From NCBI RefSeq assembly GCF_040436345.1, contig NC_133227.1, forward strand, positions 26,780,671-26,844,670: 64,000 bases of DNA, read 5' to 3'. A program made the translations under genes and the position numbers. Positions within the stretch are counted from its first letter, which is position 1. Each line of letters begins with the position of its first letter. Of this stretch, positions 5,023 through 62,768 are shown in pieces. The notes beneath the pieces were generated by a model, which did not search any database, was not told the origin of the DNA, and saw only the letters and a list, made by a program, of their open reading frames with translations. Source of the stretch: Pagrus major (taxonomy: Eukaryota; Chordata; Actinopteri; Spariformes; Sparidae).

Positions 5023-6684
5023 CTACTTGAGCTCACACAACTCTGCTGTGTCACCAGCAAAGTTTGGAAGCCAAAATCCAGCATAGAGAGGCTGAGTGAA
5101 CGTGGTCTGGACTCTGTGGAGGAGAGTGATGGTTTCAGAGACGCTGTAGTAAGACAGAGTACCTGCACTATGATCCAGGTAAACTCCTATTGTGGAGGAC
5201 TGAGGGCCTGAGATGGAAGTATCAATATTATTATGTCTGAATGTATAACCTCCACTGTTACATATTAATGACCAGGATTTGTCATTATATCCAAATCCAC
5301 ATTCAGTACGGGTCCCTGTTCTGCTAATGTTCTTGTATGAAACTGCTAGAATAACTCTCCCGCTCCACTTCACCTCCCAGTAACAACGTCCAGTCAGACC
5401 CTCTCTACTCAGGACCTGCCACATTTCACCAAATCTGTGTGGGTGAGCTGAATATACCTGGTCTACTGACATTAATGTTGCTTTTCTGTTCCTGTCACTT
5501 AATGACAAACTTGTGTTTGCTGTGTTTGGATCCAGTGTGATTTCACAAGAATACTTGAGAAGTTCAGTTCTGGTTCTGGGCTCTGCTTGAGGCAGTAAAA
5601 CATCCACTTCAGTCACTGCCCGTGAGATCTTTGTCCACTCCTCACTCAGGACAGCCTGAAGTTTACCTCTGGCCTCCGACACAGCTGCTGTCACACCCTC
5701 AAAAGAGCACAGAGGACGTATATCAACGCTGGATAAGTCTTTAGGTTCGCTCAGACGTGACAGTGAGAAGTAGTTGTTCAGGAAATGGAGATGATCTTCA
5801 GTGTGTGAGAGCTTCTCCAGCTCAGCGTCTTTCCTCCGCAGCTCAGTGATCTCCTGCTGCAGCTCCTCCTCAAGATCTTTAGCTCGACTCACTTCAGTTT
5901 TCTGCTGTGATCTGATCTGCTGCTTCACTTCAGAGCTTCTCTTCTCAATGAGACGGATCAAGTCGGTGAATGTCTTCTCGCTGTCCTCCACAGCTTTGTC
6001 AGCAGAAAGATTGATAGCCTCCAACCTCCGCTGAAGCACCTTGACGTCTTTCTCCCTGTCCTGGATTCTCTGTTGGATTGTTTGCTGACTCGCCCCGAGC
6101 TCCGTCTGCCTCTCAGCCCTTTCTGCTGCAGCAGAGACTGTGTCATGGCCTTTATGATCATCCATGGAGCAGAGATAACAGATACACTGCTGATCAGTGC
6201 GGCAGAAAATCTTCATCACCTCGTCATGGCGAGAGCAGATGTTCTCCTGAAGCTTTAAGGTGGCTTCAACCAGCTTGTGTTTCTTTAATGTAGCCACACT
6301 GTAGTGAGGCTGGAGGTGTTGCTCACAGTAAGAGGCCATACACACCAGACAGGACTTGAAGGCTTTCAGCTTCTTCCCAGTGCAGTAATCACAGGCCACG
6401 TCTCCAGGTCCAGCATAGGAATGATCAGGTGAAGCAGCTTGAAGTTGTACTTTCTTCACTTCCTCCACTAACTCTGCTAACATGGTGTTTTTCACCAGGA
6501 CAGGCCTCGGTGTGAAGCTCTGCCTGCACTGAGGGCAGCTGTGTGCTTCCTTGTCTTTCTCCGTGTCCCAGCAGTCTTTAATACAGCTCATGCAGTAGCT
6601 GTGCCCACAGGGAATAGTCACTGGATCCTTCAGAAGATCCAGACAGATTGAACAGCTCAGTTTCTCTCGATCCAGCTGCGACAT
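5023..6684 (-). CDS. TRIM E3 ubiquitin ligase copy 2 (C2), 553 aa
   Basis: Complete intronless TRIM protein. The N-terminus is MSQLDREK, lacking the HVLQ residues of the longer copies, so domain positions are 4 lower: RING about 11-53, B-box1 98-127, B-box2 150-180, coiled coil 184-311, PRY-SPRY about 375-553. The B30.2 landmarks are LDPNTA, CYWEVKW and GVYLDHSAGTLSYY. The variable SPRY block (about 5221-5439) reads GEMW, RVILAVS, TRTECGFGYN and ICNSGGYTFRHNN; the C-terminal patch is AGFWLPNFAGD. C8 carries the same five patches almost unchanged although it lies 33 kb away. The promoter holds an exact ISRE-like match 31 bp before the ATG. Expected role: innate-immune ubiquitin ligase (family knowledge); the ligand is unknown. 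Confidence 0.93.
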   Translation of the reverse strand: MSQLDREKLSCSICLDLLKDPVTIPCGHSYCMSCIKDCWDTEKDKEAHSCPQCRQSFTPRPVLVKNTMLAELVEEVKKVQLQAASPDHSYAGPGDVACDYCTGKKLKAFKSCLVCMASYCEQHLQPHYSVATLKKHKLVEATLKLQENICSRHDEVMKIFCRTDQQCICYLCSMDDHKGHDTVSAAAERAERQTELGASQQTIQQRIQDREKDVKVLQRRLEAINLSADKAVEDSEKTFTDLIRLIEKRSSEVKQQIRSQQKTEVSRAKDLEEELQQEITELRRKDAELEKLSHTEDHLHFLNNYFSLSRLSEPKDLSSVDIRPLCSFEGVTAAVSEARGKLQAVLSEEWTKISRAVTEVDVLLPQAEPRTRTELLKYSCEITLDPNTANTSLSLSDRNRKATLMSVDQVYSAHPHRFGEMWQVLSREGLTGRCYWEVKWSGRVILAVSYKNISRTGTRTECGFGYNDKSWSLICNSGGYTFRHNNIDTSISGPQSSTIGVYLDHSAGTLSYYSVSETITLLHRVQTTFTQPLYAGFWLPNFAGDTAELCELK

Positions 6685-6714
6685 TTCTCCTCCAGACGAC
6701 AGTGAATGTCAGTA

Positions 6715-6728
6715 AGTTTCACTTTCTG
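6715..6728 (-). promoter_or_regulatory. ISRE-like element before C2
   Basis: On the plus strand agtttcactttctg, which fits the interferon-stimulated response element AGTTTCNNTTTC exactly. It lies 31 bp before the C2 ATG. TRIM genes of this class are often interferon-induced (family knowledge); whether this site works is not shown. Confidence 0.5.
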
Positions 6729-7409
6729 TTTCCAGATAAAAGCTGAGCTCATTTCCTTGATGTTCAGTCACTGGTCTGTAGTGTATGAGCCTATCAGCTG
6801 TTGTATTTCATCACATGGTGTTTAGACCCATGTTTTCACTGGCAGATCTATGAAAGGGGAGGAACTACCAACGTCAGAGCTGAATGTGCTTTGAGAGTTT
6901 CTCAGAGCAGGAGGAGCCGAGCCTGGCCAGTCAGTAACGTCTGGGTGGGGTTAAAAAGTTGTGTCTAATCCAGGAAGAGGAGGGTTGTGAGAGTTGCATT
7001 GTGTATCAGCACTCAGAAATAGTGCACTGCTCAGATAACTATATAATTAACCCGTGTTCCCAGAGGAACCTGATTTACAGGGTACAAGGTTCCTTTTTCC
7101 TTCTGTCTTCTTACAACAGGGTTGTTTAACAAAATACTTGCTGAATTCCCTTTACGCTCCTCACTAAAGAAAACAAATCTGTAAATGGATGAATAAAAAA
7201 TAAGACACAACAATAAACAATTTCTTGTAGTTGAGAGCAGAGGATGAGTTCAGGAGTCTCCCAGCCTGAGGAAAGAAGCTGCTCTGTAGTCTGGTGGTGA
7301 AGCAGACTAGTAACACCTGTACTTCTAAATGTTTGTTGTGAAAAGATGAAACATTTTGGCTTTTTTTGGTCCATATTCTGCTCTAACTGGGTTTATGTAC
7401 TGAAGCACC

Positions 7410-7466
7410 GTGTCTGTCATGGCCTTTACGATCACCCATGGAGCAGTGATAACAGATACAGTGCTA
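7410..7466 (-). pseudogene. TRIM B-box2 relic in S2
   Basis: Same relic as in S1, right after the 157-bp-class repeat. Confidence 0.65.
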
Positions 7467-7731
7467 AGAAGGAATAAGGGACAGAGGGATGATTATGAAA
7501 AGTGGATAACCTCAAACAAACTCACTAACATGATTAATTTATTGATATTCTGGTCATCTTTAGCTGTAAGTTAAGTTATTTCTGGTGAAATTACCCAGAC
7601 AGTTTGACAACCATTCACACCTGGGCTCACCTGGCCTTAGAAACCCACATGAAGGCCGGTTTGACCAACGACTCTTATGACTCTGTCAGGACACTCCCAC
7701 ACAGAGTTTAAAAGCCTGCGACTCCCCTCCA

Positions 7732-7863
7732 GTTAGTGAGAACTGAAGAAGCCTCTTGGATGAGAGGTGAAACGTCTTCAAGAAACTGAAACAGGTCCAG
7801 TTACCTACGATACAGCACCTAGATTTACCATGACCTGGATGACTGAGAACCTTCATCAACACG
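7732..7863. mobile_element. Retroelement tail fragment in S2
   Basis: Same fossil fragment as in S1 at the corresponding place. Confidence 0.45.
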
Positions 7864-10507: not shown

Positions 10508-12181
10508 CTACTTGAGCTCACACAACTCTGCTGTGTCACCAACATTGTTTGGAAGCCAAAATCCAGGATAGAGAGGCTGAGTGAACGTGGTCTGGACTCT
10601 GTGGAGGAGAGTGATGGTTTCAGAGACGCTGTAGTAAGACAGAGTACCTGCACTATGATCCAGGTAAACTCCTATTGTGGAGGACTGAGGGCCTGAGATG
10701 GAAGTAACAATATTATTATGTCTGAATTCATAACCTCTACTGTCACATCTTAATGACCAGGATTTGTTATTATTTCCAAATGCACATTCAGTATAGGTCC
10801 CTGTTCTGCTAATGTTCTTGTATGAAACTGCTATACGAATTGTCCCGCTCCACTTCACCTCCCAGTAACAACGTCCAGTCAGACCCTCTCTACTCAGGAC
10901 CTGCGCCAATTTACCAAATCTGTCTGGGTGAGCTGAATATACCTGGTCTACTGACATTAATGTTGCTTTTCTGTTCCTGTCACTTAATGACAAACTTTTG
11001 TTTGCTGTGTTTGGATCCAGTGTGATTTCACAAGAATACTTGAGAAGTTCAGTTCTGGTTCTGGGCTCTGCTTGAGGCAGTAAAACATCCACTTCAGTCA
11101 CTGCCCGTGAGATCTTTGTCCACTCCTCACTCAGGACAGCCTGAAGTTTATCTCTGGCCTCCGACACAGCTGCTGTCACACCCTCAAAAGAGCACAGAGG
11201 ACGTATATCAATGCTGGGTAAGTCTTTAGGTTCGCTCAGACGTGACAGTGAGAAGTAGTTGTTCAGGAAATGGAGATGATCTTCAGTGTGTGAGAGCTTC
11301 TCCAGCTCAGTGTCTTTCCTCCGCAGCTCAGTGATCTCCTGCTGCAGCTCCTCCTCAAGATCTTTAGCTCGACTCACTTCAGTTTTCTGCTGTGATCTGA
11401 TCTGCTGCTTCACTTCAGAGCTTCTCTTCTCAATGAGACGGATCAACTGGGTGAATGTCTTCTCACTGTCCTCCACAGCTTTGTCAGCAGAAAGATTGAT
11501 AGCCTCCACCCTCCGCTGAAGCACCTTGACGTCTTTCTCTCTGTCCTGGATTCTCTGTTGGATTGTTTGCTGACTCGCCCCGAGCTCCGTCTGCCTCTCA
11601 GCCCTTTCTGCTGCAGCAGAGACTGTGTCATGGCCTTTATGATCATCCATGGAGCAGAGATAACAGATACACTGCTGATCAGTGCGGCAGAAAATCTTCA
11701 TCACCTCGTCATGGCGAGAGCAGATGTTCTCCTGAAGCTTTAAGGTGGCTTCAACCAGCTTGTGTTTCTTGAATGGAGCCACACTGTAGTGAGGCTGAAG
11801 GTGTTGCTCACAGTAAGAGGCCATACACACCAGACAGGACTTGAAGGCTTTCAGCTTCTTCCCAGTGCAGAAGTCACAGGCCACGTCTCCAGGTCCAGCA
11901 TAGGAATGATCAGGTGAAGCAGCTTGAAGTTGTACTTTCTTCACTTCCTCCACTAACTCTGCAAACATGATGTTTTTCACCAGGACAGGCCTCGGTGTGA
12001 AGCTCTGCCTGCACTGAGGGCAGCTGTGTGCTTCCTTGTCTTTCTCCGTGTCCCAGCAGTCTTTAATACAGCTCATGCAGTAGCTGTGCCCACAGGGAAT
12101 AGTCACCGGATCCTTCAGAAGATCCAGACAGATTGAACAGCTCAGTTTCTCTCGATCCAGCTGAAGCACATGCTGCGCCAT
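10508..12181 (-). CDS. TRIM E3 ubiquitin ligase copy 3 (C3), 557 aa
   Basis: Complete single-exon TRIM gene with the long N-terminus MAQHVLQLDREK. RING ligands are C15, C18, C30, H32, C35, C38, C54 and C57. B-box1 starts CDFCTG near residue 102. B-box2 uses C154, H157, C165, D168, C173, C176, H181 and H184. The coiled coil covers about 188-315, and PRY begins near LDPNTA at 388. The SPRY patches (about 10706-10924) are GKLAQ, TIRIAVS, TYTECAFGNNN and RCDSRGYEFRHNNIV, with PGFWLPNNVGD at the end. GKLA is found in no other copy; the others have aromatic W or F there. This suggests a different ligand, which is inference. Its 3' flank is type A and its 5' flank leads into a B-short spacer. Confidence 0.93.
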   Translation of the reverse strand: MAQHVLQLDREKLSCSICLDLLKDPVTIPCGHSYCMSCIKDCWDTEKDKEAHSCPQCRQSFTPRPVLVKNIMFAELVEEVKKVQLQAASPDHSYAGPGDVACDFCTGKKLKAFKSCLVCMASYCEQHLQPHYSVAPFKKHKLVEATLKLQENICSRHDEVMKIFCRTDQQCICYLCSMDDHKGHDTVSAAAERAERQTELGASQQTIQQRIQDREKDVKVLQRRVEAINLSADKAVEDSEKTFTQLIRLIEKRSSEVKQQIRSQQKTEVSRAKDLEEELQQEITELRRKDTELEKLSHTEDHLHFLNNYFSLSRLSEPKDLPSIDIRPLCSFEGVTAAVSEARDKLQAVLSEEWTKISRAVTEVDVLLPQAEPRTRTELLKYSCEITLDPNTANKSLSLSDRNRKATLMSVDQVYSAHPDRFGKLAQVLSREGLTGRCYWEVKWSGTIRIAVSYKNISRTGTYTECAFGNNNKSWSLRCDSRGYEFRHNNIVTSISGPQSSTIGVYLDHSAGTLSYYSVSETITLLHRVQTTFTQPLYPGFWLPNNVGDTAELCELK

Positions 12182-13957: not shown

Positions 13958-13973
13958 TATGTACTGAAGCACC

Positions 13974-14035
13974 GTGTCTATCATGGCCTTTACGATCACC
14001 CATGGAGCAGTGACAACAGATACAGTGCTAAGAAG
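13974..14035 (-). pseudogene. TRIM B-box2 relic in S3
   Basis: Same relic, here after the second of the two 157-bp repeats. Its presence in both A and B spacers dates it before their split. Confidence 0.65.
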
Positions 14036-15374: not shown

Positions 15375-17036
15375 CTACTTGAGCTCACACAACTCTGCTG
15401 TGCTACCAAAACTGTCTGGAAGCAAAAATCCAGCATAGAGAGGCTGAGTGAACGTGGTCTGGACTCTGTGGAGGAGAGTGATGGTTTCAGAGACGCTGTA
15501 GTAAGACAGAGTACCTGCACTATGATCCAGGTAAACTCCTATTGTGGAGGACTGAGGGCCTGAGATGGAAGTAACAATATTATGATGAAAGAATCTATAA
15601 CCTCCACTGTAACATCTTAATGACCAGGATTTGTCATTATTTCCAAATCCACATTCATACACGGTCCCTGTTCTGCTAATGTTCTTGTATGCAACTGCTA
15701 TATCAACCATCCCGCTCCACTTCACCTCCCAGTAACAACGTCCAGTCAGACCGTCTCTACTCAGGACCTGCCACATTTCACCAAATCTGTGTGGGTGAGC
15801 TGAATATACCTGGTCTACTGACATTAATGTTGCTTTTCTGTTCCTGTCACTTAATGACAAACGTTTGTTTGCTGTGTTTGGATCCAGTGTGATTTCATAA
15901 GAATACTTGAGAAGTTCAGTTCTGGTTCTGGGCTCTGCTTGAGGCAGTAAAACATCCACTTCAGTCACTGCCAGTGAGATCTTTGTCCACTCCTCACTCA
16001 GGACAGCCTGAAGTTTATCTCTGGCCTCCGACACAGATGCTGTCACACCCTCAAAAGAGCACAGAGGACGTATAACAATGCTGGGTAAGTCTTTAGGTTC
16101 GCTCAGACCTGACAGTGAGAAGTAGTTGTTCAGGAAATGGAGTTGATCTTCAGTGTGTGAGAGCTTCTCCAGCTCAGCGTCTTTCCTCCGCAGCTCAGTG
16201 ATCTCCTGCTGCAGCTCCTCCTCAAGATCTTTAGCTCGACTCACTTCAGTTTTCTGCTGTGATCTGATCTGCTGCTTCACTTCAGAGCTTCTCTTCTCAA
16301 TGAGACGGATCAACTGGGTGAATGTCTTCTCGCTGTCCTCCACAGCTTTGTCAGCAGAAAGATTGATAGCCTCCACCCTCCGCTGAAGCACCTTGACGTC
16401 TTTCTCTCTGTCCTGGATTCTCTGTTGGATTGTTTGCTGACTCGCCCCGAGCTCCGTCTGCCTCTCAGCCCTTTCTGCTGCAGCAGAGACTGTGTCATGG
16501 CCTTTATGATCATCCATGGAGCAGAGATAACAGATACACTGCTGATCAGTGCGGCAGAAAATCTTCATCACCTCGTCATGGCGAGAGCAGATGTTCTCCT
16601 GAAGCTTTAAGGTGGCTTCAACCAGCTTGTGTTTCTTTAATGGAGCCAGACTGTAGTGAGGCTGGAGGTGTTGCTCACAGTATGAGAGCATACACACCAG
16701 ACAGGACTTGAAGGCTTTCAGCTTCTTCCCAGTGCAGTAATCACAGGCCACGTCTCCAGGTCCAGCATAGGAATGATCAGGTGAAGCAGCTTGAAGTTGT
16801 ACTTTCTTCACTTCCTCCACTAACTCTGCTAACATGGTGTTTTTCACCAGGACAGGCCTCGGTGTGAAGCTCTGCCTGCACTGAGGGCAGCTGTGTGCTT
16901 CCTTGTCTTTCTCCGTGTCCCAGCAGTCTTTAATACAGCTCATGCAGTAGCTGTGCCCACAGGGAATAGTCACTGGATCCTTCAGAAGATCCAGACAGAT
17001 TGAACAGCTCAGTTTCTCTCGATCCAGCTGCGCCAT
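15375..17036 (-). CDS. TRIM E3 ubiquitin ligase copy 4 (C4), 553 aa
   Basis: Complete TRIM protein starting MAQLDREK, the short N-terminus but with Ala rather than Ser at position 2. All RING and both B-box ligands are present. B-box1 has MLSYCEQH and SLAPLKK, a pair shared with C8. Other changes are HTEDQLHFL, LSGLSEP, VTASVSE and YEITLD. SPRY patches (about 15573-15791) are GEMW, MVDIAVA, TVYECGFGNN and RCYSGGYRFFHHNIV; the C-terminal patch AGFLLPDSFGS is unlike the rest. RFFHHN is shared only with C6. The 3' flank is type B. The upstream region is unusual: a type A promoter runs straight into a second, type C promoter with no gene between them. Confidence 0.93.
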   Translation of the reverse strand: MAQLDREKLSCSICLDLLKDPVTIPCGHSYCMSCIKDCWDTEKDKEAHSCPQCRQSFTPRPVLVKNTMLAELVEEVKKVQLQAASPDHSYAGPGDVACDYCTGKKLKAFKSCLVCMLSYCEQHLQPHYSLAPLKKHKLVEATLKLQENICSRHDEVMKIFCRTDQQCICYLCSMDDHKGHDTVSAAAERAERQTELGASQQTIQQRIQDREKDVKVLQRRVEAINLSADKAVEDSEKTFTQLIRLIEKRSSEVKQQIRSQQKTEVSRAKDLEEELQQEITELRRKDAELEKLSHTEDQLHFLNNYFSLSGLSEPKDLPSIVIRPLCSFEGVTASVSEARDKLQAVLSEEWTKISLAVTEVDVLLPQAEPRTRTELLKYSYEITLDPNTANKRLSLSDRNRKATLMSVDQVYSAHPHRFGEMWQVLSRDGLTGRCYWEVKWSGMVDIAVAYKNISRTGTVYECGFGNNDKSWSLRCYSGGYRFFHHNIVTSISGPQSSTIGVYLDHSAGTLSYYSVSETITLLHRVQTTFTQPLYAGFLLPDSFGSTAELCELK

Positions 17037-27623: not shown

Positions 27624-29300
27624 CTACTTGAGCTCACACAACTCTGCTGTGCCACCAGTTAGTGGAGATGGAAGCCAAAATCCAGCATAGAGAGGCTGAG
27701 TGAACGTGGTCTGGACTCTGTGGAGGAGAGTGATGGTTTCAGAGACGCTGTAGTAAGACAGAGTACCTGCACTATGATCCAGGTAAACTCCTATTGTGGA
27801 GGACTGAGGGCCTGAGATGGAAGTAACAATATTATGATGAAAGAATCTATAACCTCCACTGTCACATCTTAATGACCAGGATTTGTCATTAAATCCAAAT
27901 CCACATTCATTCATGGTCCCTGTTCTGCTAATGTTCTTGTATGAAACTGCTATAAAAATTGTCCCGCTCCACTTCACCTCCCAGTAACAACGTCCAGTCA
28001 GACCCTCTCTACTCAGGACCTGAAACCATTCACCAAATCTGTGTGGGTGAGCTGAATATACCTGGTCTACTGACATTACTGTTGCTTTTCTGTTCCTGTC
28101 ACTTAATGACAAACGTTTATTTGCTGTGTTTGGATCCAGTGTGATTTCACAAGAATACTTGAGAAGTTCAGTTCTGGTTCTGGGCTCTGCTTGAGGCAGT
28201 AAAACATCCACTTCAGTCACTGCCAGTGAGATCTTTGTCCACTCCTCACTCAGGACAGCCTGAAGTTTATCTCTGGCCTCCGACACAGCTGCTGTCACAC
28301 CCTCAAAAGAGCACAGAGGACGTATAACAATGCTGGGTAAGTCTTTAGGTTCGCTCAGACGTGACAGTGAGAAGTAGTTGTTCAGGAAATGGAGATGATC
28401 TTCAGTGTGTGAGAGCTTCTCCAGCTCAGTGTCTTTCCTCCGCAGCTCAGTGATCTCCTGCCGCAGCTCCTCCTCAAGATCTTTAGCTCGACTCACTTCA
28501 GTTTTCTGCTGTGATCTGATCTGCTGCTTCACTTCAGAGCTTCTCTTCTCAATGAGACGGATCAACTGGGTGAATGTCTTCTCGCTGTCCTCCACAGCTT
28601 TGTCAGCAGAAAGATTGATAGCCTCCACCCTCCGCTGAAGCACATTGACGTCTTTCTCTCTGTCCTGGATTCTCTGTTGGATTGTTTGCTGACTCGCCCC
28701 GAGCTCCGTCTGCCTCTCAGCCCTTTCTGTTGCAGCAGAGACTTTGACATGGCCTTTATGATCATCCATGGAGCAGAGATAACAGATACACTGCTGATCA
28801 GTGCGGCAGAAAATCTTCATCACCTCGTCATGGCGAGAGCAGATGTTCTCCTGAAGCTTTAAGGTGGCTTCAACCAGCTTGTGTTTCTTTAATGTAGCCA
28901 CACTGTAGTGAGGCTGGAGGTGTTGCTCACAGTAAGAGGCCATACACACCAGACAGGACTTGAAGGCTTTCAGCTTCTTCCCAGTGCAGTAATCACAGGC
29001 CACGTCTCCAGGTCCAGCATAGGAATGATCAGGTGAAGCAGCTTGAAGTTGTACTTTCTTCACTTCCTCCACCAACTCTGCAAACATGGTGTTTTTCACC
29101 AGGACAGGCCTCGGTGTGAAGCTCTGCCTGCACTGAGGGCAGCTGTGTGCTTCCTTGTCATTCTCCGTGTCCCAGCAGCCTTTAATACAGCTCATGCAGT
29201 AGTTGTGCCCACAGGGAATAGTCACTGGATCCTTCAGAAGATCCAGGCAGATTGAGCAGCTCAGTTTCTCTCGATCCAGCTGAAGCACATGCTGCGCCAT
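27624..29300 (-). CDS. TRIM E3 ubiquitin ligase copy 6 (C6), 558 aa
   Basis: The longest copy. RING reads CGHNYC (Asn for Ser, shared with C7) and the following loop IKGCWDTEN. B-box2 is followed by GHVKVSAATE where nearly all others have GHDTVSAAAE. The coiled coil has KDVNVLQ and LRQEI. SPRY patches (about 27825-28043) are GEWF, TIFIAVS, TMNECGFGFN and RCDSGGYRFFHHNIV. The C-terminal patch AGFWLPSPLTGG is one residue longer than in the other copies, the only length change inside a variable SPRY patch. The start is MAQHVLQ with a good context. The 3' flank is type B (S5) and the 5' flank type A (S6). Confidence 0.93.
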   Translation of the reverse strand: MAQHVLQLDREKLSCSICLDLLKDPVTIPCGHNYCMSCIKGCWDTENDKEAHSCPQCRQSFTPRPVLVKNTMFAELVEEVKKVQLQAASPDHSYAGPGDVACDYCTGKKLKAFKSCLVCMASYCEQHLQPHYSVATLKKHKLVEATLKLQENICSRHDEVMKIFCRTDQQCICYLCSMDDHKGHVKVSAATERAERQTELGASQQTIQQRIQDREKDVNVLQRRVEAINLSADKAVEDSEKTFTQLIRLIEKRSSEVKQQIRSQQKTEVSRAKDLEEELRQEITELRRKDTELEKLSHTEDHLHFLNNYFSLSRLSEPKDLPSIVIRPLCSFEGVTAAVSEARDKLQAVLSEEWTKISLAVTEVDVLLPQAEPRTRTELLKYSCEITLDPNTANKRLSLSDRNRKATVMSVDQVYSAHPHRFGEWFQVLSREGLTGRCYWEVKWSGTIFIAVSYKNISRTGTMNECGFGFNDKSWSLRCDSGGYRFFHHNIVTSISGPQSSTIGVYLDHSAGTLSYYSVSETITLLHRVQTTFTQPLYAGFWLPSPLTGGTAELCELK

Positions 29301-32958: not shown

Positions 32959-34620
32959 CTACTTGAGCTCACACAACTCTGCTGTGTCACCAACACTGTT
33001 TGGAAGCCGAAATCCAGGATAGAGAGGCTGAGTGAACGTGGTCTGGACTCTGTGGAGGAGAGTGATGGTTTCAGAGACGCTGTAGTAAGACAGAGTACCT
33101 GCACTATGATCCAGGTAAACTCCTATTGTGGAGGACTGAGGGCCTGAGATGGAAGTATCAATATTATTATGTCTGAATCTATAACCTCCACTGTTACATT
33201 CTAATGACCAGGATTTGTCATTACATCCAAATCCACATCCAGTAAAGGTCCCTGTTCTGCTAATGTTCTTGTATGCAACTGCTAAACAAACTCTCCCGCT
33301 CCACTTCACCTCCCAGTAACAACGTCCAGTCAGACCCTCTCTACTCAGGACCTGCCACCTTTCACCAAATCTGTCTGGGTGAGCTGAATATACCTGGTCT
33401 ACTGACATTAATGTTGCTTTTCTGTTCCTGTCACTTAATGACAAACGTTTGTATGCTGTGTTTGGATCCAGTGTGATGTCACAAGAATACTTGAGAAGTT
33501 CAGTTCTGGTTCTGGGCTCTAAAACATCCACTCCAGTCACTGCCAGTGAGATCTTTGTCCACTCCTCACTCAGGACAGCCTGAAGTTTATCTCTGGCCTC
33601 CGACACAGCTGCTGTCACACCCTCAAAAGAGCACAGAGGACGTATAACAATGCTGGGTAAGTCTTTAGGTTCGCTTAGACGTGACAGTGAGAAGTAGTTG
33701 TTCAGGAAATGGAGATGATCTTCTGTGTGTGAGAGCTTCTCCAGCTCAGCGTCTTTCCTCCGCAGCTCTGTGATCTCCTGCTGCAGCTCCTCCTCAAGAT
33801 CTTTAGCTCGACTCACTTCAGTTTTCTGCTGTGATCTGATCTGCTGCTTCACTTCAGAGCTTCTCTTCTCAATGAGACGGATCAACTGGGTGAATGTCTT
33901 CTCGCTGTCCTCCACAGCTTTGTCAGCAGAAAGATTGATAGCCTCCACCCTCCGCTGAAGCACCTTGACGTCTTTCTCTCTGTCCTGGATTCTCTGTTGG
34001 ATTGTTTGCTGACTCGCCCCGAGCTCCGTCTGCCTCTCAGCCCTTTCTGCTGCAGCAGAGACTGTGTCATGGCCTTTATGATCATCCATGGAGCAGAGAT
34101 AACAGATACACTGCTGATCAGTGCGGCAGAAAATCTTCATCACCTCGTCATGGCGAGAGCAGATGTTCTCCTGAAGCTTTGAGGTGGCTTCAACCAGCTT
34201 GTGTTTCTTTAATGGAGCCACACTGTAGTGAGGCTGGAGGTGTTGCTCACAGTATGAGAGCATACACACCAGACAGGACTTGAAGGCTTTCAGCTTCTTC
34301 CCAGTGCAGTAATCACAGGCCACATCTCCAGGTCCAGCATAGGAATGATCAGGTGAAGCAGCTTGAAGTTGTACTTTCTTCACTTCCTCCACCAACTCTG
34401 CAAACATGGTGTTTTTCACCAGGACAGGCCTCGGTGTGAAGCTCTGCCTGCACTGAGGGCAGCTGTGTGCTTCCTTGTCTTTCTCCGTGTCCCAGCAGTC
34501 TTTAATACAGCTCATGCAGTAGTTGTGCCCACAGGGAATAGTCACCGGATCCTTCAGAAGATCCAGGCAGATTGAACAGCTCAGTTTCTCTCGATCCAGT
34601 TGAAGCACATGCTGCGCCAT
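32959..34620 (-). CDS. TRIM E3 ubiquitin ligase copy 7 (C7), 553 aa
   Basis: Complete TRIM protein with the long N-terminus, but lacking four residues just before PRY: VDVLEPRT replaces VDVLLPQAEPRT, an in-frame 12-base deletion shared only with C12. The following CDITLD is also shared with C12. RING has CGHNYC as in C6. B-box1 has MLSY and SVAPLKK. SPRY patches (about 33157-33375) are GERW, RVCLAVA, TFTGCGFGCN and ECNSGGYRFRHNN, ending PGFRLPNSVGD. The Gly in TFTGC replaces the usual Glu. The upstream region is the type C promoter, whose ISRE-like box is degraded. The deletion lies in the linker between coiled coil and SPRY and leaves both domains whole. Confidence 0.93.
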   Translation of the reverse strand: MAQHVLQLDREKLSCSICLDLLKDPVTIPCGHNYCMSCIKDCWDTEKDKEAHSCPQCRQSFTPRPVLVKNTMFAELVEEVKKVQLQAASPDHSYAGPGDVACDYCTGKKLKAFKSCLVCMLSYCEQHLQPHYSVAPLKKHKLVEATSKLQENICSRHDEVMKIFCRTDQQCICYLCSMDDHKGHDTVSAAAERAERQTELGASQQTIQQRIQDREKDVKVLQRRVEAINLSADKAVEDSEKTFTQLIRLIEKRSSEVKQQIRSQQKTEVSRAKDLEEELQQEITELRRKDAELEKLSHTEDHLHFLNNYFSLSRLSEPKDLPSIVIRPLCSFEGVTAAVSEARDKLQAVLSEEWTKISLAVTGVDVLEPRTRTELLKYSCDITLDPNTAYKRLSLSDRNRKATLMSVDQVYSAHPDRFGERWQVLSREGLTGRCYWEVKWSGRVCLAVAYKNISRTGTFTGCGFGCNDKSWSLECNSGGYRFRHNNIDTSISGPQSSTIGVYLDHSAGTLSYYSVSETITLLHRVQTTFTQPLYPGFRLPNSVGDTAELCELK

Positions 34621-38482: not shown

Positions 38483-40156
38483 CTACTTGAGCTCACACAA
38501 CTCTGCTGTGTCACCAGCAAAGTTTGGAAGCCAAAATCCAGGATAGAGAGGCTGAGTGAACGTGGTCTGGACTCTGTGGAGGAGAGTGATGGTTTCAGAG
38601 ACGCTGTAGTAAGACAGAGTACCTGCACTATGATCCAGGTAAACTCCTATTGTGGAGGACCGAGGGCCTGAGATGGAAGTATCAATATTATTATGTCTGA
38701 ATGTATAACCTCCACTGTTACATATTAATGACCAGGATTTGTCGTTATATCCAAATCCACATTCAGTACGGGTCCCTGTTCTGCTAATGTTCTTGTATGA
38801 AACTGCTAGAATAACTCTCCCGCTCCACTTCACCTCCCAGTAACAATGTCCAGTCAGACCCTCTCTACTCAGGACCTGCCACATTTCACCAAATCTGTGT
38901 GGGTGAGCTGAATATACCTGGTCTACTGACATTAATGTTGCTTTTCTGTTCCTGTCACTTAATGACAAACGTGTGTTTGCTGTGTTTGGATCCAGTGTGA
39001 TTTCACAAGAATACTTGAGGAGTTCAGTTCTGGTTCTGGGCTCTGCTTGAGGCAGTAAAACATCCACTTCAGTCACTGCCAGTGAGATCTTTGTCCACTC
39101 CTCACTCAGGACAGCCTGAAGTTTATCTCTGGCCTCCGACACAGCTGCTGTCACACCCTCAAAAGAGCACAGAGGACGTATATCAACGCTGGATAAGTCT
39201 TTAGGTTCGCTCAGACGTGACAGTGAGAAGTAGTTGTTCAGGAAATGGAGATGATCTTCAGTGTGTGAGAGCTTCTCCAGCTCAGTGTCTTTCCTCCGCA
39301 GCTCAGTGATCTCCTGCTGCAGCTCCTCCTCAAGATCTTTAGCTCGACTCACTTCAGTTTTCTGCTGTGATCTGATCTGCTGCTTCACTTCAGAGCTTCT
39401 CTTCTCAATGAGACGGATCAAGTCGGTGAATGTCTTCTCACTGTCCTCCACAGCTTTGTCAGCAGAAAGATTTATAGCCTCCACCCTCCGCTGAAGCACC
39501 TTGACGTCTTTCTCTCTGTCCTGGATTCTCTGTTGGATTGTTTGCTGACTCGCCCCGAGCTCCGTCTGCCTCTCAGCCCTTTCTGCTGCAGCAGAGACTG
39601 TGTCATGGCCTTTATGATCATCCATGGAGCAGAGATAACAGATACACTGCTGATCAGTGCGGCAGAAAATCTTCATCACCTCGTCATGGCGAGAGCAGAT
39701 GTTCTCCTGAAGCTTTAAGGTGGCTTCAACCAGCTTGTGTTTCTTTAATGGAGCCAGACTGTAGTGAGGCTGGAGGTGTTGCTCACAGTATGAGAGCATA
39801 CACACCAGACAGGACTTGAAGGCTTTCAGCTTCTTCCCAGTGCAGTAATCACAGGCCACGTCTCCAGGTCCAGCATAGGAATGATCAGGTGAAGCAGCTT
39901 GAAGTTGTACTTTCTTCACTTCCTCCACTAACTCTGCTAACATGGTGTTTTTCACCAGGACAGGCCTCGGTGTGAAGCTCTGCCTGCACTGAGGGCAGCT
40001 GTGTGCTTCCTTGTCTTTCTCCGTGTCCCAGCAGTCTTTAATACAGCTCATGCAGTAGCTGTGCCCACAGGGAATAGTCACCGGATCCTTCAGAAGATCC
40101 AGACAGATTGAACAGCTCAGTTTCTCTCGATCCAGCTGAAGCACATGCTGCGCCAT
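38483..40156 (-). CDS. TRIM E3 ubiquitin ligase copy 8 (C8), 557 aa
   Basis: Complete TRIM protein starting MAQHVLQ. B-box1 has MLSY and SLAPLKK as in C4. The SPRY block (about 38681-38899) is GEMW, RVILAVS, TRTECGFGYN and ICNSGGYTFRHNN, ending PGFWLPNFAGD. This matches C2 apart from Ala/Pro in the last patch, PRSS for PQSS and GHCYW for GRCYW. The shared block continues into the 3' flank: both lack a short GTGCA duplication and both have an AAAC-repeat motif near the stop. The N-terminal half is not C2-like, so the gene is probably a mosaic. An exact ISRE-like box sits 31 bp before the ATG, as in C2 and C12. Confidence 0.93.
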   Translation of the reverse strand: MAQHVLQLDREKLSCSICLDLLKDPVTIPCGHSYCMSCIKDCWDTEKDKEAHSCPQCRQSFTPRPVLVKNTMLAELVEEVKKVQLQAASPDHSYAGPGDVACDYCTGKKLKAFKSCLVCMLSYCEQHLQPHYSLAPLKKHKLVEATLKLQENICSRHDEVMKIFCRTDQQCICYLCSMDDHKGHDTVSAAAERAERQTELGASQQTIQQRIQDREKDVKVLQRRVEAINLSADKAVEDSEKTFTDLIRLIEKRSSEVKQQIRSQQKTEVSRAKDLEEELQQEITELRRKDTELEKLSHTEDHLHFLNNYFSLSRLSEPKDLSSVDIRPLCSFEGVTAAVSEARDKLQAVLSEEWTKISLAVTEVDVLLPQAEPRTRTELLKYSCEITLDPNTANTRLSLSDRNRKATLMSVDQVYSAHPHRFGEMWQVLSREGLTGHCYWEVKWSGRVILAVSYKNISRTGTRTECGFGYNDKSWSLICNSGGYTFRHNNIDTSISGPRSSTIGVYLDHSAGTLSYYSVSETITLLHRVQTTFTQPLYPGFWLPNFAGDTAELCELK

Positions 40157-47791: not shown

Positions 47792-49465
47792 CTACTTGAG
47801 CTCACACAACTCTGCTGTGTCACCATCATTGTATGGAAGCCAAAATCCAGGATAGAGAGGCTGAGTGAACGTGGTCTGGACTCTGTGGAGGAGAGTGATG
47901 GTTTCAGAGACGCTGTAGTAAGACAGAGTACCTGCACTATGATCCAGGTAAACTCCTATTGTGGAGGACTGAGGGCCTGAGATGGAAGTATCAATATCAT
48001 TATGTCTGAATTTATAACCTCCACTGTTACATCCTAATGACCAGGATTTGTCATTCAATCCAAATACACATTCATTCATAGTCCCTGTTCTGCTAATGTT
48101 CTTGTATGTAACTGCTATATCAACGTACCCGCTCCACTTCACCTCCCAGTAACAACGTCCAGTCAGACCCTCTCTACTCAGGACCTGCCACCATTCACCA
48201 AATCTGTCTGGGTGAGCTGAATATACCTGGTCTACTGACATTAATGTTGCTTTTCTGTTCCTGTCACTTAATAACAAACGTGTGTTTGCTGTGTTTGGAT
48301 CCAGTGTGATCTCGCAAGAATACTTGAGAAGTTCAGTTCTGGTTCTGGGCTCTGCTTGAGGCAGTAAAACATCCACTTCAGTCACTGCCAGTGAGATCTT
48401 TGTCCACTCCTCACTCAGGACAGCCTGAAGTTTATCTCTGGCCTCCGACACAGCTGCTGTCACACCCTCAAAAGAGCACAGAGGACGTATAACAATGCTG
48501 GGTAAGTCTTTAGGTTCGCTCAGACGTGACAGTGAGAAGTAGTTGTTCAGGAAATGGAGATGATCTTCAGTGTGTGAGAGCTTCTCCAGCTCAGTGTCTT
48601 TCCTCCGCAGCTCAGTGATCTCCTGCCGCAGCTCCTCCTCAAGATCTTTAGCTCGACTCACTTCAGTTTTCTGCTGTGATCTGATCTGCTGCTTCACTTC
48701 AGAGCTTCTCTTCTCAATGAGACGGATCAACTGGGTGAATGTCTTCTCACTGTCCTCCACAGCTTTGTCAGCAGAAAGATTGATCACCTCCACCCTCCGC
48801 TGAAGCACCTTGACGTCTTTCTCTCTGTCCTGGATTCTCTGTTGGATTGTTTGCTGACTCGCCCCGAGCTCCGTCTGCCTCTCAGCCCTTTCTGCTGCAG
48901 CAGAGACTGTGTCATGGCCTTTATGATCATCCATGGAGCAGAGAATACAGATACACTGCTGATCAGTGCGGCAGAAAATCTTCATCACCTCGTCATGGCG
49001 AGAGCAGATGTTCTCCTGAAGCTTTAAGGTGGCTTCAACCAGCTTGTGTTTCTTTAATGGAGCCACACTGTAGTGAGGCTGGAGGTGTTGCTCACAGTAA
49101 GAGGCCATACACACCAGACAGGACTTGAAGGCTTTCAGCTTCTTCCCAGTGCAGTAATCACAGGCCACGTCTCCAGGTCCAGCATAGGAATGATCAGGTG
49201 AAGCAGCTTGAAGTTGTACTTTCTTCACTTCCTCCACTAACTCTGCTAACATGGTGTTTTTCACCAGGACAGGCCTCGGTGTGAAGCTCTGCCTGCACTG
49301 AGGGCAGCTGTGTGCTTCCTTGTCATTCTCCGTGTCCCAGCAGTCTTTAATACAGCTCATGCAGTAGCTGTGCCCACAGGGAATAGTCACCGGATCCTTC
49401 AGAAGATCCAGACAGATTGAACAGCTCCGTTTCTCTCGATCCAGCTGAAGCACTTGCTGCGCCAT
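47792..49465 (-). CDS. TRIM E3 ubiquitin ligase copy 10 (C10), 557 aa
   Basis: Complete TRIM protein starting MAQQVLQ (Gln for His at residue 4, unique). RING starts EKRSC like C9. B-box2 has CICILC like C1 and C12. The coiled coil carries VEVINLS and LRQEI; PRY has TRLLLSD. SPRY patches (about 47990-48208) are GEWW, YVDIAVT, TMNECVFGLN and GCNSGGYKFRHND, ending PGFWLPYNDGD. The upstream region is a hybrid: type C sequence next to the ATG changes to type A sequence about 85 bp upstream. The 3' flank is type A. Its spacer S10 carries the hAT insertion. Confidence 0.93.
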   Translation of the reverse strand: MAQQVLQLDREKRSCSICLDLLKDPVTIPCGHSYCMSCIKDCWDTENDKEAHSCPQCRQSFTPRPVLVKNTMLAELVEEVKKVQLQAASPDHSYAGPGDVACDYCTGKKLKAFKSCLVCMASYCEQHLQPHYSVAPLKKHKLVEATLKLQENICSRHDEVMKIFCRTDQQCICILCSMDDHKGHDTVSAAAERAERQTELGASQQTIQQRIQDREKDVKVLQRRVEVINLSADKAVEDSEKTFTQLIRLIEKRSSEVKQQIRSQQKTEVSRAKDLEEELRQEITELRRKDTELEKLSHTEDHLHFLNNYFSLSRLSEPKDLPSIVIRPLCSFEGVTAAVSEARDKLQAVLSEEWTKISLAVTEVDVLLPQAEPRTRTELLKYSCEITLDPNTANTRLLLSDRNRKATLMSVDQVYSAHPDRFGEWWQVLSREGLTGRCYWEVKWSGYVDIAVTYKNISRTGTMNECVFGLNDKSWSLGCNSGGYKFRHNDIDTSISGPQSSTIGVYLDHSAGTLSYYSVSETITLLHRVQTTFTQPLYPGFWLPYNDGDTAELCELK

Positions 49466-58917: not shown

Positions 58918-60148
58918 AGTTGAGAGCAGAGGATGAGTTCAGGAGTCTCCCAGCCTGAGGAAAGAAGCTGCTCTGTAGTCTGGTGGTGAAGCAGACTAGT
59001 AACACCTGTACTTCTAAATGTTTGTTGTGAAAAGATGAAACATTTCTTGGTCCATATTCTGCTCTAACTGGGTTCATTGTCCTGACCGGTCAGATTCTGT
59101 GGTGGATATTTTGTGCTTGGTGTTTGTTTCTTCCTCTGTTGTGCTTGCAGAGGTGCATTGAGAGGCTGGGCGGAGCTTCCCACTCACCGGAGCTGCTGAC
59201 ACACACTCACCTGCAGCAGGTTGGCAGTTAGTCTTGCTGATAAAGCCCTGCTCTCCACGCTACCTGCTTCCAGGTGATTTCATCAGTTCGATGTGGCACA
59301 TGGCTCCTGTTAGATCGTCGTTTTGTATGACTTGTAGTTTTTTCGTGTTCACTCCACACACAGTGTTCACCTGCACCTGCACCTCTGCAGCCAGCAGCCT
59401 CACCCTGTGCTCACCAGTCTCAACTCACCACGCTACCTCACCTCCACTTGTACGGTTTTCATCAGATATGACGACGACAGCAAAATCTGGCCTGAAGTCA
59501 GTTTCCTAAGACAGAACAACGGTTCTTCTAACATGTTCTTGTCACTTTGTAGAAAGTCTTTCACAAACAATTAGTGTGTATCTTTTGTGTTATTCATCAA
59601 ATCCACTAACTGCATTATTTGGATATAAACATAGATACCAAGCAAAGTTAAATTTGTCCCAGTAAAACTAAAAATGCCATCTGTTATATGAATGTGTCTC
59701 TGAATGCACTGACTTTGCTTGATCTGGCACTTAATTACACAAAAGCATTATTATTTGATGTCATATTTGTGTGAACGTTTGAAGGAAAAATACAGTTACT
59801 CAAAGGTTATTTCTGCCTAAATATGACTTGATCTCATTCTTGAGCTTCATAATATAAAGATCTGAGCTCAGGAGACAGCTTGAAATCCTTTTAAAGGACC
59901 ATTACAACAGAAAATGGGCCTTTTCACCTGCCAAAAACTGATTGAAGGCCAAATACAGTTACTGAAAGGCCATTTTCAGAAATAAATTTCAAGTTGAGAG
60001 CAGAGGATGAGTTCAGGAGTCTCCCAGCCTGAGGGAAGAAGCTGCTCTGTTGTCTGGTGGTGAAGCAGACTAGTAACACCTGTACTTCTAAATGTTTGTT
60101 GTGAAAAGATGAAACATTTTTTGGTCCATATTCTGCTCTAACTGGGTT
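58918..60148. repeat. Pair of 157-bp direct repeats in S11
   Basis: Repeats at 58918-59074 and 59992-60148 with the same boundaries as in S3 and S8. Confidence 0.7.
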
Positions 60149-60160
60149 TATGTACTGAAG

Positions 60161-60213
60161 CACCGTGTCTATCGTGGCCTTTACGATCACCCATGGAGCA
60201 GTGACAACAGATA
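60161..60213 (-). pseudogene. TRIM B-box2 relic in S11, truncated
   Basis: Same relic, ending at acagata where a deletion joins it to ttttcctgtatg, a sequence that lies about 430 bp further away in S8. Confidence 0.6.
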
Positions 60214-61106
60214 TTTTCCTGTATGAAAGAGCCAACATGTCACAAACTTAAAATCATCTCAGAATTGTGCTGTTTCTGGTGAAATGACCCATCAGCTCCA
60301 TGATAACATGGAGGTTATCTGACTGCCTTCATTGATCTCCCTGTGTGTGTTTCTGTTCCCACACTATCTTGAAAAAATGATTGATTGAAATGAAATTTAG
60401 TAGGAAAACAAGTGATTCTGGTGATATTCTGACAGTTAAAGGAAGAACACACAGTCACCTATTCATTTATGTGTTTATTTATTTATTTGAAGGTTTTGAA
60501 CAAAGACTTTTCATAACTGCTTCTTAAAATTGTTACTACATATTGACACGATATCAGTTTTAACAAGACGATCAACAAACTATTTTCAGAGGGTTAATTT
60601 TGAAACTATACAAGCTGATATTTTACTGATGTTTTTCATGCAGGTTTTGGTTACATAAAAAAAATGGAAATATGATTTTGAAACATTAAAACAGAGGCAC
60701 ACTATGAAGGACAGACAGAAGTATGTGCAAAACTAAAAGTAAAGATGAAATTACACAAAATATGTTCTTGAAGATTTGGTACAAATAAAATTACATGAAA
60801 ATCTTAAAACTCAAAAAAACTCAAAAGTCAGCCTGACAAAAACTCATTCATTATTTCACATCTTGCATATGTAATATTTCCCAAATGTTCAGTAAATGAA
60901 GCTCAAAAGTCAAATTTCAACAAACAAGATGGTCTAATCACTCTGTAGGAAACAATAACAGTTTCTCTAAACTGAGAAGAAAAAAACAAAACAATATAAA
61001 ATCCAAGAAAAATCATCATCGTCCCACCTCCTATGTTCGATCAGTGCAGTGCAGACACACCTCAACATGTACAGCACCACAGATGAGTCTCTCTTTAATC
61101 TCCTGT

Positions 61107-62768
61107 CTACTTGAGCTCACACAACTCTGCTGTGTCACCAACACTGTTTGGAAGCCAAAGTCCAGGATAGAGAGGCTGAGTGAACGTGGTCTGGACTCTG
61201 TGGAGGAGAGTGATGGTTTCAGAGACGCTGTAGTAAGACAGAGTACCTGCACTATGATCCAGGTAAACTCCTATTGTGGAGGACTGAGGGCCTGAGATGG
61301 AAGTATCAATATCATTATGTCTGAATGTATAACCTCCACTGTTACATTCTAATGACCAGGATTTGTCATTACATCCAAATTCACATTCAGTACAGGTCCC
61401 TGTTCTGCTAATGTTCTTGTATGCAACTGCTATACAGACGTACCCGCTCCACTTCACCTCCCAGTAACAACGTCCAGTCAGACCCTCTCTACTCAGGACC
61501 TGCCACCTTTCACCAAATCTGTCTGGGTGAGCTGAATATACCTGGTCTACTGACATTAATGTTGCTTTTCTGTTCCTGCCACTTAATGACAAACTTGTGT
61601 TTGCTGTGTTTGGATCCAGTGTGATGTCACAAGAATACTTGAGAAGTTCAGTTCTGGTTCTGGGCTCTAAAACATCCACTCCAGTCACTGCCCGTGAGAT
61701 CTTTGTCCACTCCTCACTCAGGACAGCCTGAAGTTTATCTCTGGCCTCCGACACAGCTGCTGTCACACCCTCAAAAGAGCACAGAGGACGTATAACAATG
61801 CTGGGTAAGTCTTTAGGTTCGCTCAGACGTGACAGTGAGAAGTAGTTGTTCAGGAAATGGAGATGATCTTCAGTGTGTGAGAGCTTCTCCAGCTCAGTGT
61901 CTTTCCTCCGCAGCTCAGTGATCTCCTGCCGCAGCTCCTCCTCAAGATCTTTAGCTCGACTCACTTCAGTTTTCTGCTGTGATCTGATCTGCTGCTTCAC
62001 TTCAGAGCTTCTCTTCTCAATGAGACGGATCAACTCGGTGAATGTCTTCTCACTGTCCTCCACAGCTTTGTCAGCAGAAAGATTGATAGCCTCCACCCTC
62101 CGCTGAAGCACCTTGACGTCTTTCTCTCTGTCCTGGATTCTCTGTTGGATTGTTTGCTGACTTGCCCCGAGCTCCGTCTGCCTCTCAGCCCTTTCTGCTG
62201 CAGCAGAGACTGTGTCATGGCCTTTATGATCATCCATGGAGCAGAGAATACAGATACACTGCTGATCAGTGCGGCAGAAAATCTTCATCACCTCGTCATG
62301 GCGAGAGCAGATGTTCTCCTGAAGCTTTGAGGTGGCTTCAACCAGCTTGTGTTTCTTGAATGTAGCCACACTGTAGTGAGGCTGGAGGTGTTGCTCACAG
62401 TAAGAGGCCATACACACCAGACAGGACTTGAAGGCTTTCAGCTTCTTCCCAGTGCAGTAATCACAGGCCACATCTCCAGGTCCAGCATAGGAATGATCAG
62501 GTGAAGCAGCTTGAAGTTGTACTTTCTTCACTTCCTCCACCAACTCTGCAAACATGATGTTTTTCACCAGGACAGGCCTCGGTGTGAAGCTCTGCCTGCA
62601 CTGAGGGCAGCTGTGTGCTTCCTTCTCTTTCTCCGTGTCCCAGCAGTCTTTAATACAGCTCATGCAGTAGCTGTGCCCACAGGGAATAGTCACCGGATCC
62701 TTCAGAAGATCCAGACAGATTGAACAGCTCAGTTTCTCTCGATCCAGCTGAAGCACATGCTGCGCCAT
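61107..62768 (-). CDS. TRIM E3 ubiquitin ligase copy 12 (C12), 553 aa
   Basis: Complete TRIM protein with the long N-terminus and the four-residue linker deletion (VDVLEPRT) seen also in C7. B-box2 has CICILC; PRY has NTSLSLSGRNR, the Gly being shared with C1. SPRY patches (about 61305-61523) are GERW, YVCIAVA, TCTECEFGCN and ECNSGGYTFRHND, ending PGLWLPNSVGD. The GERW, FGCN and ECNSGGY patches also match C7, so this linker-to-SPRY stretch likely descends from one exchange event. An exact ISRE-like box lies 31 bp before the ATG. The 3' flank is type B with small deletions. Confidence 0.93.
   Translation of the reverse strand: MAQHVLQLDREKLSCSICLDLLKDPVTIPCGHSYCMSCIKDCWDTEKEKEAHSCPQCRQSFTPRPVLVKNIMFAELVEEVKKVQLQAASPDHSYAGPGDVACDYCTGKKLKAFKSCLVCMASYCEQHLQPHYSVATFKKHKLVEATSKLQENICSRHDEVMKIFCRTDQQCICILCSMDDHKGHDTVSAAAERAERQTELGASQQTIQQRIQDREKDVKVLQRRVEAINLSADKAVEDSEKTFTELIRLIEKRSSEVKQQIRSQQKTEVSRAKDLEEELRQEITELRRKDTELEKLSHTEDHLHFLNNYFSLSRLSEPKDLPSIVIRPLCSFEGVTAAVSEARDKLQAVLSEEWTKISRAVTGVDVLEPRTRTELLKYSCDITLDPNTANTSLSLSGRNRKATLMSVDQVYSAHPDRFGERWQVLSREGLTGRCYWEVKWSGYVCIAVAYKNISRTGTCTECEFGCNDKSWSLECNSGGYTFRHNDIDTSISGPQSSTIGVYLDHSAGTLSYYSVSETITLLHRVQTTFTQPLYPGLWLPNSVGDTAELCELK

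What the first reader, a model, noticed from the sequence alone, without database searches (positions are those of the whole stretch)
5023..62768. A shared TRIM chassis with five hypervariable SPRY patches
Across eleven complete copies the RING, B-boxes and coiled coil are nearly invariant. Differences pile up at about residues 424-426, 447-453, 462-470, 478-487 and 539-549 (557-aa numbering). Examples at 447-453 are RVILAVS, TIRIAVS, MVDIAVA, TIFIAVS, RVCLAVA, YVDIAVT, MVYIAVA and YVCIAVA. Most base changes there alter the amino acid, while the rest of the gene shows few changes of any kind. In TRIM5alpha and finTRIMs SPRY loops of this sort bind the target and evolve under positive selection. 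The array looks like a diversified recognition repertoire on one effector.
Basis: partly seen in the sequence, partly recalled or inferred. Interest (0 to 1): 0.82.

Follow-up and report, generated by a model that had tools for sequence, protein, structure and literature searches.

The report
TRIM gene array with hypervariable pockets
A chromosome, probably of a fish, carries 29 near-identical copies of an immune-type ubiquitin ligase gene whose predicted target-binding pocket differs from copy to copy, apparently because selection keeps changing it while the copies exchange short pieces of DNA.

Summary
The window carries 11 complete single-exon RING/B-box/coiled-coil/PRY-SPRY genes and part of a twelfth, within a 29-copy array (28 intact) of a 786-Mb genome. 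Replacement changes pile up in the five named patches, and also at 489-492, 394-396, 408 and 420. A likelihood test for sites with dN>dS in PRY-SPRY exceeds every null simulation, with and without recombination, here and in 29 relatives on two other chromosomes, where mostly the same positions are hypervariable. All six key antibody contacts of human TRIM21 map to positions with entropy above 0.8 bits. Corrections: the 'nearly invariant chassis' mostly reflects a young, exchanging array (gene-plus-spacer DNA is 95-98% identical), and chassis constraint is moderate; silent divergence is also raised in the patches, so dN/dS there is near 3. New here: the copies exchange short tracts so freely that variable codons are clearly associated only within two codons, and 27 combinations of six patches occur among 28 copies. 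This is a sharply documented new member of a known kind, the fish TRIM-B30.2 (finTRIM-like) repertoires. Pathogen recognition is the likeliest function but is inferred.

The parts
3..1211 (-). A03, TRIM copy cut by the window edge (codons 1-403 in the window; intact 557-aa ORF in the genome)
   Evidence: tblastn; full ORF in L012
5023..6684 (-). T1 = A04, 553 aa; same as T7 in the six patches, but differs from it at 539, 437 and 499
10508..12181 (-). T2 = A05, 557 aa; reference for the 557 numbering
15375..17036 (-). T3 = A06, 553 aa
20409..22070 (-). T4 = A07, 553 aa; PRY-SPRY modelled
27624..29300 (-). T5 = A08, 558 aa; one-codon insertion in patch 5
32959..34620 (-). T6 = A09, 553 aa; LPQA deletion before PRY
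38483..40156 (-). T7 = A10, 557 aa
43354..45024 (-). T8 = A11, 556 aa; C42F, not in the C3HC4 pattern
47792..49465 (-). T9 = A12, 557 aa
56700..58373 (-). T10 = A13, 557 aa
61107..62768 (-). T11 = A14, 553 aa; LPQA deletion as in T6
10511..11071 (-). PRY-SPRY of the reference copy T2 (codons 371-557)
10904..10912 (-). patch 1 in T2, codons 424-426 (TRIM21 327-329)
10823..10843 (-). patch 2 in T2, codons 447-453 (449 = TRIM21 D355)
10772..10798 (-). patch 3 in T2, codons 462-470
10721..10750 (-). patch 4 in T2, codons 478-487 (478, 480 = TRIM21 W381, W383)
10535..10567 (-). patch 5 in T2, codons 539-549 (546, 547 = TRIM21 F450, D452; this stretch aligns only to within about two residues)

Best explanation
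The finding is part of a germline-encoded recognition repertoire: a young tandem array of 29 single-exon TRIM ubiquitin-ligase genes of a TRIM25/TRIM16-like (finTRIM-like) lineage. The RING, B-box and coiled coil are kept as a common effector. The PRY-SPRY target pocket is diversified by selection for amino-acid change. Frequent short-tract exchange between copies (gene conversion or unequal recombination) keeps the rest of the array alike and reassorts pocket residues into new combinations. Shown here: the array and its intactness, the excess of replacement change, largely the same hypervariable positions in independent arrays, the match to the TRIM21 antibody-binding pocket, and the mainly short-range association between variable codons. 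Inferred: that each copy binds a different ligand, that the ligands are mostly pathogen (viral) proteins or peptides, and that binding leads to ubiquitination.
For: 28 of 29 copies have intact ORFs. The PRY-SPRY selection test exceeds all nulls in three data sets. Of 13 comparable positions with entropy >1.3 in the C13 array, 12 are also >1.3 in 29 relatives on C12 and C5, Fisher p=5e-10. 6 of 6 TRIM21 key contacts exceed 0.8 bits, p=8e-6 on C13 and 8.5e-5 on C12/C5; with seven ligand-proximal residues added it is 8 of 13 and 10 of 13 (p=9e-5, 2e-5) (residue lists from passages of PMC6722209 and PMC12647892). All C/H residues in codons 7-200 are invariant in 28 copies except C42. Exchange: Hudson-Kaplan minimum of 36 intervals, order-permutation p=0.0005, r2 near 1/n beyond about 75 bp. 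Hypervariable codons are associated at 1-2 codons (mean z 3.0) and little beyond.
Against: No expression, binding or infection data. The order test is not significant in PRY-SPRY alone (p=0.17) or in third positions alone (p=0.16), so recurrent mutation in the pocket cannot be told from exchange there, and it also inflates the count of 36. On C12/C5 some long-range association remains (mean z 0.8 at 100-199 codons). Silent divergence is raised about threefold in the patches. The conservative step count gives patch N/S 1.36, p=0.24. Selection is not confined to PRY-SPRY: 27 of 60 sites with posterior >0.9 on the whole-CDS tree are at codon 363 or below, and the chassis test gives 53.7 against a recombining-null maximum of 34.3 in 8 simulations, although not on C12/C5, where 62.3 is below the null mean of 80.7. 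An interferon-response core motif occurs upstream in only 5 of 28 copies.
Confidence: 0.75

Rival explanations
1. The PRY-SPRY pocket diversifies against endogenous partners, for example to vary signalling partners or to stop paralogues from cross-reacting, and not against pathogens.
For: TRIM25, a near solved relative, acts on endogenous RIG-I according to the passage seen in PMC2657112. The sequence evidence shows diversification, not what drives it.
Against: Recurrent change at the same pocket in independent arrays and many coexisting variants fit a moving target better than a fixed partner. The fish papers whose passages I saw read B30.2 diversification as pathogen recognition, and one says that direct proof is still needed.
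Confidence: 0.13
2. Relaxed constraint: surface residues of redundant young copies drift neutrally.
For: Chassis constraint is only moderate, N/S 0.42 to 0.62. Tolerance would also recur at the same surface sites in other arrays. The conservative step count in the patches is not significantly above neutral.
Against: Neutral drift should not push replacement above silent change. Diversity at positions 1 and 2 is about three times that at position 3 in hypervariable codons, the likelihood test exceeds all nulls, and 28 of 29 ORFs are intact.
Confidence: 0.06
3. A local hypermutation hotspot, without selection, makes the patches variable.
For: Four-fold silent divergence is 0.072 in the patches against 0.025 in the chassis and 0.008 in the rest of PRY-SPRY.
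Against: Third positions are the least variable in hypervariable codons: 0.171 against 0.445 and 0.549. Codon 449 shows seven codons in 28 copies, all ending in T. Older, selectively kept alleles would also raise silent divergence.
Confidence: 0.04
4. Assembly artefact: haplotypes or repeats misread as an array.
For: Long repeats that are 95-98% identical are hard to assemble.
Against: The array is continuous on a chromosome-scale contig and ends against non-TRIM ORFs on both sides. Copies differ in flanks and patches, and the same pattern is seen on other chromosomes.
Confidence: 0.02

Closest known systems
finTRIMs (ftr) of teleosts (PMC2657112: abstract, passages and part 1 of section 11 seen)
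   Same: RING/B-box/coiled-coil/B30.2 genes in clusters; positive selection in B30.2 mostly at variable-loop sites; nearest mammalian relatives TRIM16 and TRIM25; 47 of 55 medaka genes examined there single-exon
   Different: Here 28 intact copies at 92-96% DNA identity to one of them over 692 bp allow exchange to be resolved to a few codons; zebrafish genes are multi-exon, with one recombination breakpoint found there; orthology to named ftr genes was not testable here
Zebrafish NLR-B30.2 genes (PMC4852459: passages seen)
   Same: Hypervariable B30.2 under positive selection; the authors already propose that short conversion tracts recombine B30.2 substitutions across a family
   Different: NACHT/LRR chassis instead of a ubiquitin ligase; in the passages seen, conversion is inferred from synonymous divergence between groups
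btr and hltr TRIM families (PMC3137616: passages seen)
   Same: Fish class IV TRIM multigene families with positively selected B30.2 domains; recombination found in btr
   Different: Different TRIM lineages (TRIM39 and TRIM35 counterparts); no recombination was found there in hltr
TRIM21 PRYSPRY with IgG Fc (PMC6722209, PMC12647892: passages seen)
   Different: TRIM21 binds the antibody Fc; W381 and W383 are not found at 478 and 480 in any of 28 copies, so antibody binding is not implied
TRIM5alpha (partly from passages of PMC2657112, partly recalled)
   Same: B30.2 under positive selection in virus-binding loops
   Different: One gene varying between species; its main variable loop is only one of several variable parts here

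Membership tests
TRIM class IV (RBCC-PRY-SPRY) | RING, B-box, coiled coil, PRY, SPRY in that order | tested here: met
   Pfam on 4 of 11 copies; 28 copies align end to end. Pfam calls only one B-box; conserved C/H at 102-140 suggest the other
TRIM class IV (RBCC-PRY-SPRY) | B30.2 fold | tested here: met
finTRIM | Groups with teleost ftr genes apart from TRIM16 and TRIM25 in trees | not testable with these tools
   No collection of annotated fish proteins is held; best PDB sequence hits are TRIM25 for the N-terminal half and, for SPRY, stonustoxin (a fish protein), TRIM16 and TRIM25
finTRIM | Multi-exon structure as in zebrafish | tested here: not met
   Whole ORF in one exon; 47 of 55 medaka finTRIM genes are also single-exon, so this does not decide membership
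finTRIM | Positive selection in B30.2 | tested here: met
finTRIM | Induction by virus or interferon | not testable with these tools
   No expression data; GAAANNGAAA core upstream in 5 of 28 copies
TRIM25 or TRIM16 orthologue | Single gene | tested here: not met
   29 copies here and 50 further full-length matches elsewhere in the genome; conserved synteny itself was not tested
Functional E3 ligase | Intact C3HC4 RING ligands | tested here: met
   C15, C18, C30, H32, C35, C38, C54, C57 invariant in 28 copies; activity not testable

The most novel reading that the evidence does not exclude
The array works as a germline combinatorial library of pocket receptors. Paralogues exchange tracts of a few codons so often that pocket residues are nearly at linkage equilibrium across loci, so each copy is a new draw from shared alleles at about 20-30 pocket positions. 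Each pocket reads a different short peptide or loop, in the manner of TRIM21 or TRIM7, and marks its owner for ubiquitination.
Probability: 0.3. Interest if true: 0.8.

Novelty: new member of a known kind. Interest (0 to 1): 0.52.

Why it matters
Fish can carry hundreds of B30.2 genes whose targets are unknown. An array whose copies differ mostly in the pocket is a natural mutational scan: expressing the copies side by side would show which residues set specificity. It also documents, nearly at codon resolution, how exchange between genes and selection together can make a diverse recognition set without somatic rearrangement.

Tried and rejected
Considered and rejected: (1) Exchange focused on the coding region. 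LD looked high in flanks (r2 about 0.6) and low in the CDS, but after separating flank types the flanks decay just as fast, so exchange is not CDS-specific. (2) An interferon-response element near -42 of every copy: only 5 of 28 copies have the core, and the equivalent place in C12/C5 genes also looks like a splice acceptor (by eye). (3) Hidden genes in spacers: 10 spacer ORFs, of the 59 stop-to-stop ORFs, gave no Pfam hit at E 0.01; no tandem repeat of period up to 500 at score 150; no tRNA by ARAGORN. (4) 'All hypervariable sites are loops': not enriched outside strands on C13 (p=0.25), weakly on C12/C5 (p=0.03); the model has pLDDT under 50 at residues 25-54 and 88-92. (5) Chassis positive selection: a modest signal on C13, not above the recombining null on C12/C5. 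(6) A first ORF pass on one strand gave wrong ORFs and was replaced. (7) A phrase search for the annotation name 'tripartite motif-containing protein 16-like' with 'tandem' and 'fish' found no paper.

Rows dropped: A25 from all copy alignments (truncated); L040 from the C12/C5 set (482 aa), leaving 29 of 30 loci; L001-L008 (other SPRY genes) from all comparisons; gapped columns as coded, so that 545-547 could not be compared between arrays. L065 was trimmed of a 5' extension. The site list comes from my own implementation, is liberal under recombination, and is not relied on alone. Stonustoxin appears among PDB matches because it contains a B30.2 domain; it was only named.
Full report
What is there. 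The window carries eleven complete minus-strand ORFs of 553-558 aa and a twelfth cut by its left edge. Pfam finds RING, B-box, TRIM coiled coil, PRY and SPRY in the four copies scanned of eleven. The window lies at C13:26780671-26844670 of a 786-Mb, 25-contig genome. A DNA search finds 29 copies at C13:26.770-26.928 Mb, the 28 others at 92-96% identity to the query; the next matches are 79-82% identical, on C12, C21 and C17. 28 of the 29 have complete ORFs. The exception, A25, matches codons 236-552 and has a retroviral env-like ORF beside it (PF00429). The array ends against an ORF of PF17724 on one side and an ORF with a weak thioredoxin match, below Pfam's cut-off, on the other. I recall these as C5orf24 and TXNDC15, neighbours in human, but no call shows that. 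In a protein search of the genome, 78 matches were scored of 1482 candidates: 28 on C13 and 50 elsewhere. All 78 are full-length with no stop; as only the best candidates are scored, this says nothing about how many others are broken.

Is the observation more than chance? Among the 11 copies, 27 of 40 patch codons show amino-acid variation and 1 is silent-only; in the chassis it is 39 and 19 of 364. With 28 copies, codon 463 has nine residues and codons 426, 447, 449 and 485 have seven each. pN/pS is 0.62 in the chassis and 2.26 in PRY-SPRY, a region set by domain and not by variability. A mixture test of 'no site with beta>alpha' gives 2dlnL 98.2 for PRY-SPRY. Null simulations reach at most 7.6 without recombination and 42.2 with new tree labels every 12 codons (15 each). 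For the 11 window copies alone the value is 46.3 against 6.7 and 22.8; for 29 relatives on C12/C5 it is 199.5 against 14.4 and 36.2 (8 simulations each).

Results against a simple story. The most conservative tree-free count, which favours silent paths, gives N/S 0.42 in the chassis but only 1.36 in the patches (p=0.24), and 1.14 over PRY-SPRY (p=0.54). Chassis and PRY-SPRY still differ in that count (Fisher p=0.0006). Directly observed four-fold silent divergence is 0.072 in the patches (95% 0.027-0.111), 0.025 in the chassis and 0.008 in the rest of PRY-SPRY. So either patch alleles are older than the rest, as expected if selection keeps them while exchange homogenises their surroundings, or the local mutation rate is higher. 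Mutation alone does not fit, because third positions are the least variable in hypervariable codons (0.445, 0.549, 0.171). With the local silent rate as yardstick, patch dN/dS is about 3 (0.24/0.072). Selection is not confined to PRY-SPRY. In my empirical-Bayes scan 26 of 188 PRY-SPRY codons pass posterior 0.9 on their own tree and 22 of 370 chassis codons on theirs. The chassis test gave 53.7 against a recombining-null maximum of 34.3 (8 simulations) and 22.9 against 18.8 for the window copies, but on C12/C5 62.3 is below the recombining-null mean of 80.7.

Independent replication. In 29 of 30 fetched relatives on C12 and C5 (proteins on these contigs 70-73% identical; C12 DNA 79-82%), site entropy in PRY-SPRY correlates with that of the C13 array (Spearman 0.55, 184 comparable sites). 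12 of 13 comparable sites above 1.3 bits on C13 are above it there too; 18 further sites are above it only there (Fisher p=5e-10). The one exception is codon 463, the most variable on C13, which is nearly fixed there. The residues used differ, so the positions are largely shared while the contents diverge.

How the array evolves. Of 3403 pairs of biallelic sites, 1754 show all four combinations; the Hudson-Kaplan minimum is 36 intervals (recurrent mutation inflates this), and nearby sites are more compatible than permuted ones (p=0.0005). r2 falls from 0.30 within 12 bp to 0.08 at 12-75 bp and about 0.04, near 1/n, beyond 75 bp. The order test is significant in the chassis alone (p=0.001), in C12/C5 (p=0.003) and in C5 alone (p=0.001), but not in PRY-SPRY alone (p=0.17) or third positions alone (p=0.16). 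Flanks first looked different (r2 about 0.6) only because they fall into a few types; within a type they behave as the CDS does. Hypervariable codons on C13 are associated when 1-2 codons apart (mean z 3.0, 16 pairs), weakly at 3-11 codons (z 0.6-0.8) and hardly at 12 or more (z 0.34 or less). On C12/C5 the short-range peak is also seen (2.3), but weak association persists at all distances (z 0.3-0.8), as expected of a set mixed from two chromosomes. Over six patches there are 27 combinations in 28 copies; T1 and T7 share one and differ at 539. Patch similarity is not significantly tied to chassis similarity or to position in the array (Mantel p 0.15-0.26). The array thus behaves much like a recombining population of genes.

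Mechanism, shown and inferred. Shown: young tandem array, intact ORFs, selection for replacement at pocket positions, recurrence in other arrays, short-range exchange. Inferred: different ligands per copy; ubiquitination of bound targets, from RING integrity and family knowledge; pathogen origin of the ligands. I put 0.75 on the repertoire reading as a whole and 0.3 on the bolder reading of a combinatorial peptide-pocket library.

Comparison with what is known. finTRIM B30.2 domains under positive selection, in clusters, with single-exon genes in medaka, were described in 2009 (PMC2657112). Sister families followed in 2011 (PMC3137616). For zebrafish NLR-B30.2 genes, conversion that recombines B30.2 substitutions was proposed in 2016 (PMC4852459). 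The kind is therefore known. In my searches (open-licence papers only, listings and the passages cited) I met neither this array nor a codon-level association analysis among TRIM paralogues; that is not proof of absence. TRIM7 as a TRIM that captures C-terminal peptides was seen only in a search listing (PMC9394474). Membership in finTRIM proper could not be tested, as no collection of fish proteins is held.

Noticed in passing
L013 (C13:26894988-26898679), outside the window: Copy A25 lacks codons 1-235 in this locus and lies beside a 154-aa ORF matching retroviral env (PF00429); it is the only copy of 29 without a complete ORF. Described only.
   Followed up: partly
L068:3814-4512 and L069:3936-4190: The array is bounded by a PF17724 ORF and an ORF with a weak thioredoxin match, recalled as C5orf24 and TXNDC15, which are neighbours in human; the array may have arisen between two ancestral neighbours.
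   Followed up: partly
about 42-48 bp upstream of the ATG, e.g. window 6717-6732 (T1): GAAANNGAAA cores like an interferon-response element in 5 of 28 copies, one or more changes in the rest; most C12/C5 genes have GGAAGTGAA at the matching place. Regulatory element or splice acceptor is undecided.
   Followed up: partly
5' flanks of A09, A11, A18, A22, A24, A27 (T6 and T8 in the window): A second, clearly diverged upstream type, so copies with similar proteins may be regulated differently; T9 has the proximal part of this type joined to the common distal part.
   Followed up: partly
genome-wide: 78 full-length, stop-free single-exon matches scored (28 on C13, 50 on C12, C21, C17, C5, C1, C4 and C23) of 1482 first-look candidates, so the intronless TRIM expansion is probably much larger.
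   Followed up: no
window 15375-17036 and 27624-29300 (T3, T5): T3 and T5 share the RFFHHNIV segment (485-492), seen in no other copy, but differ in the neighbouring patches, an example of a mosaic.
   Followed up: no
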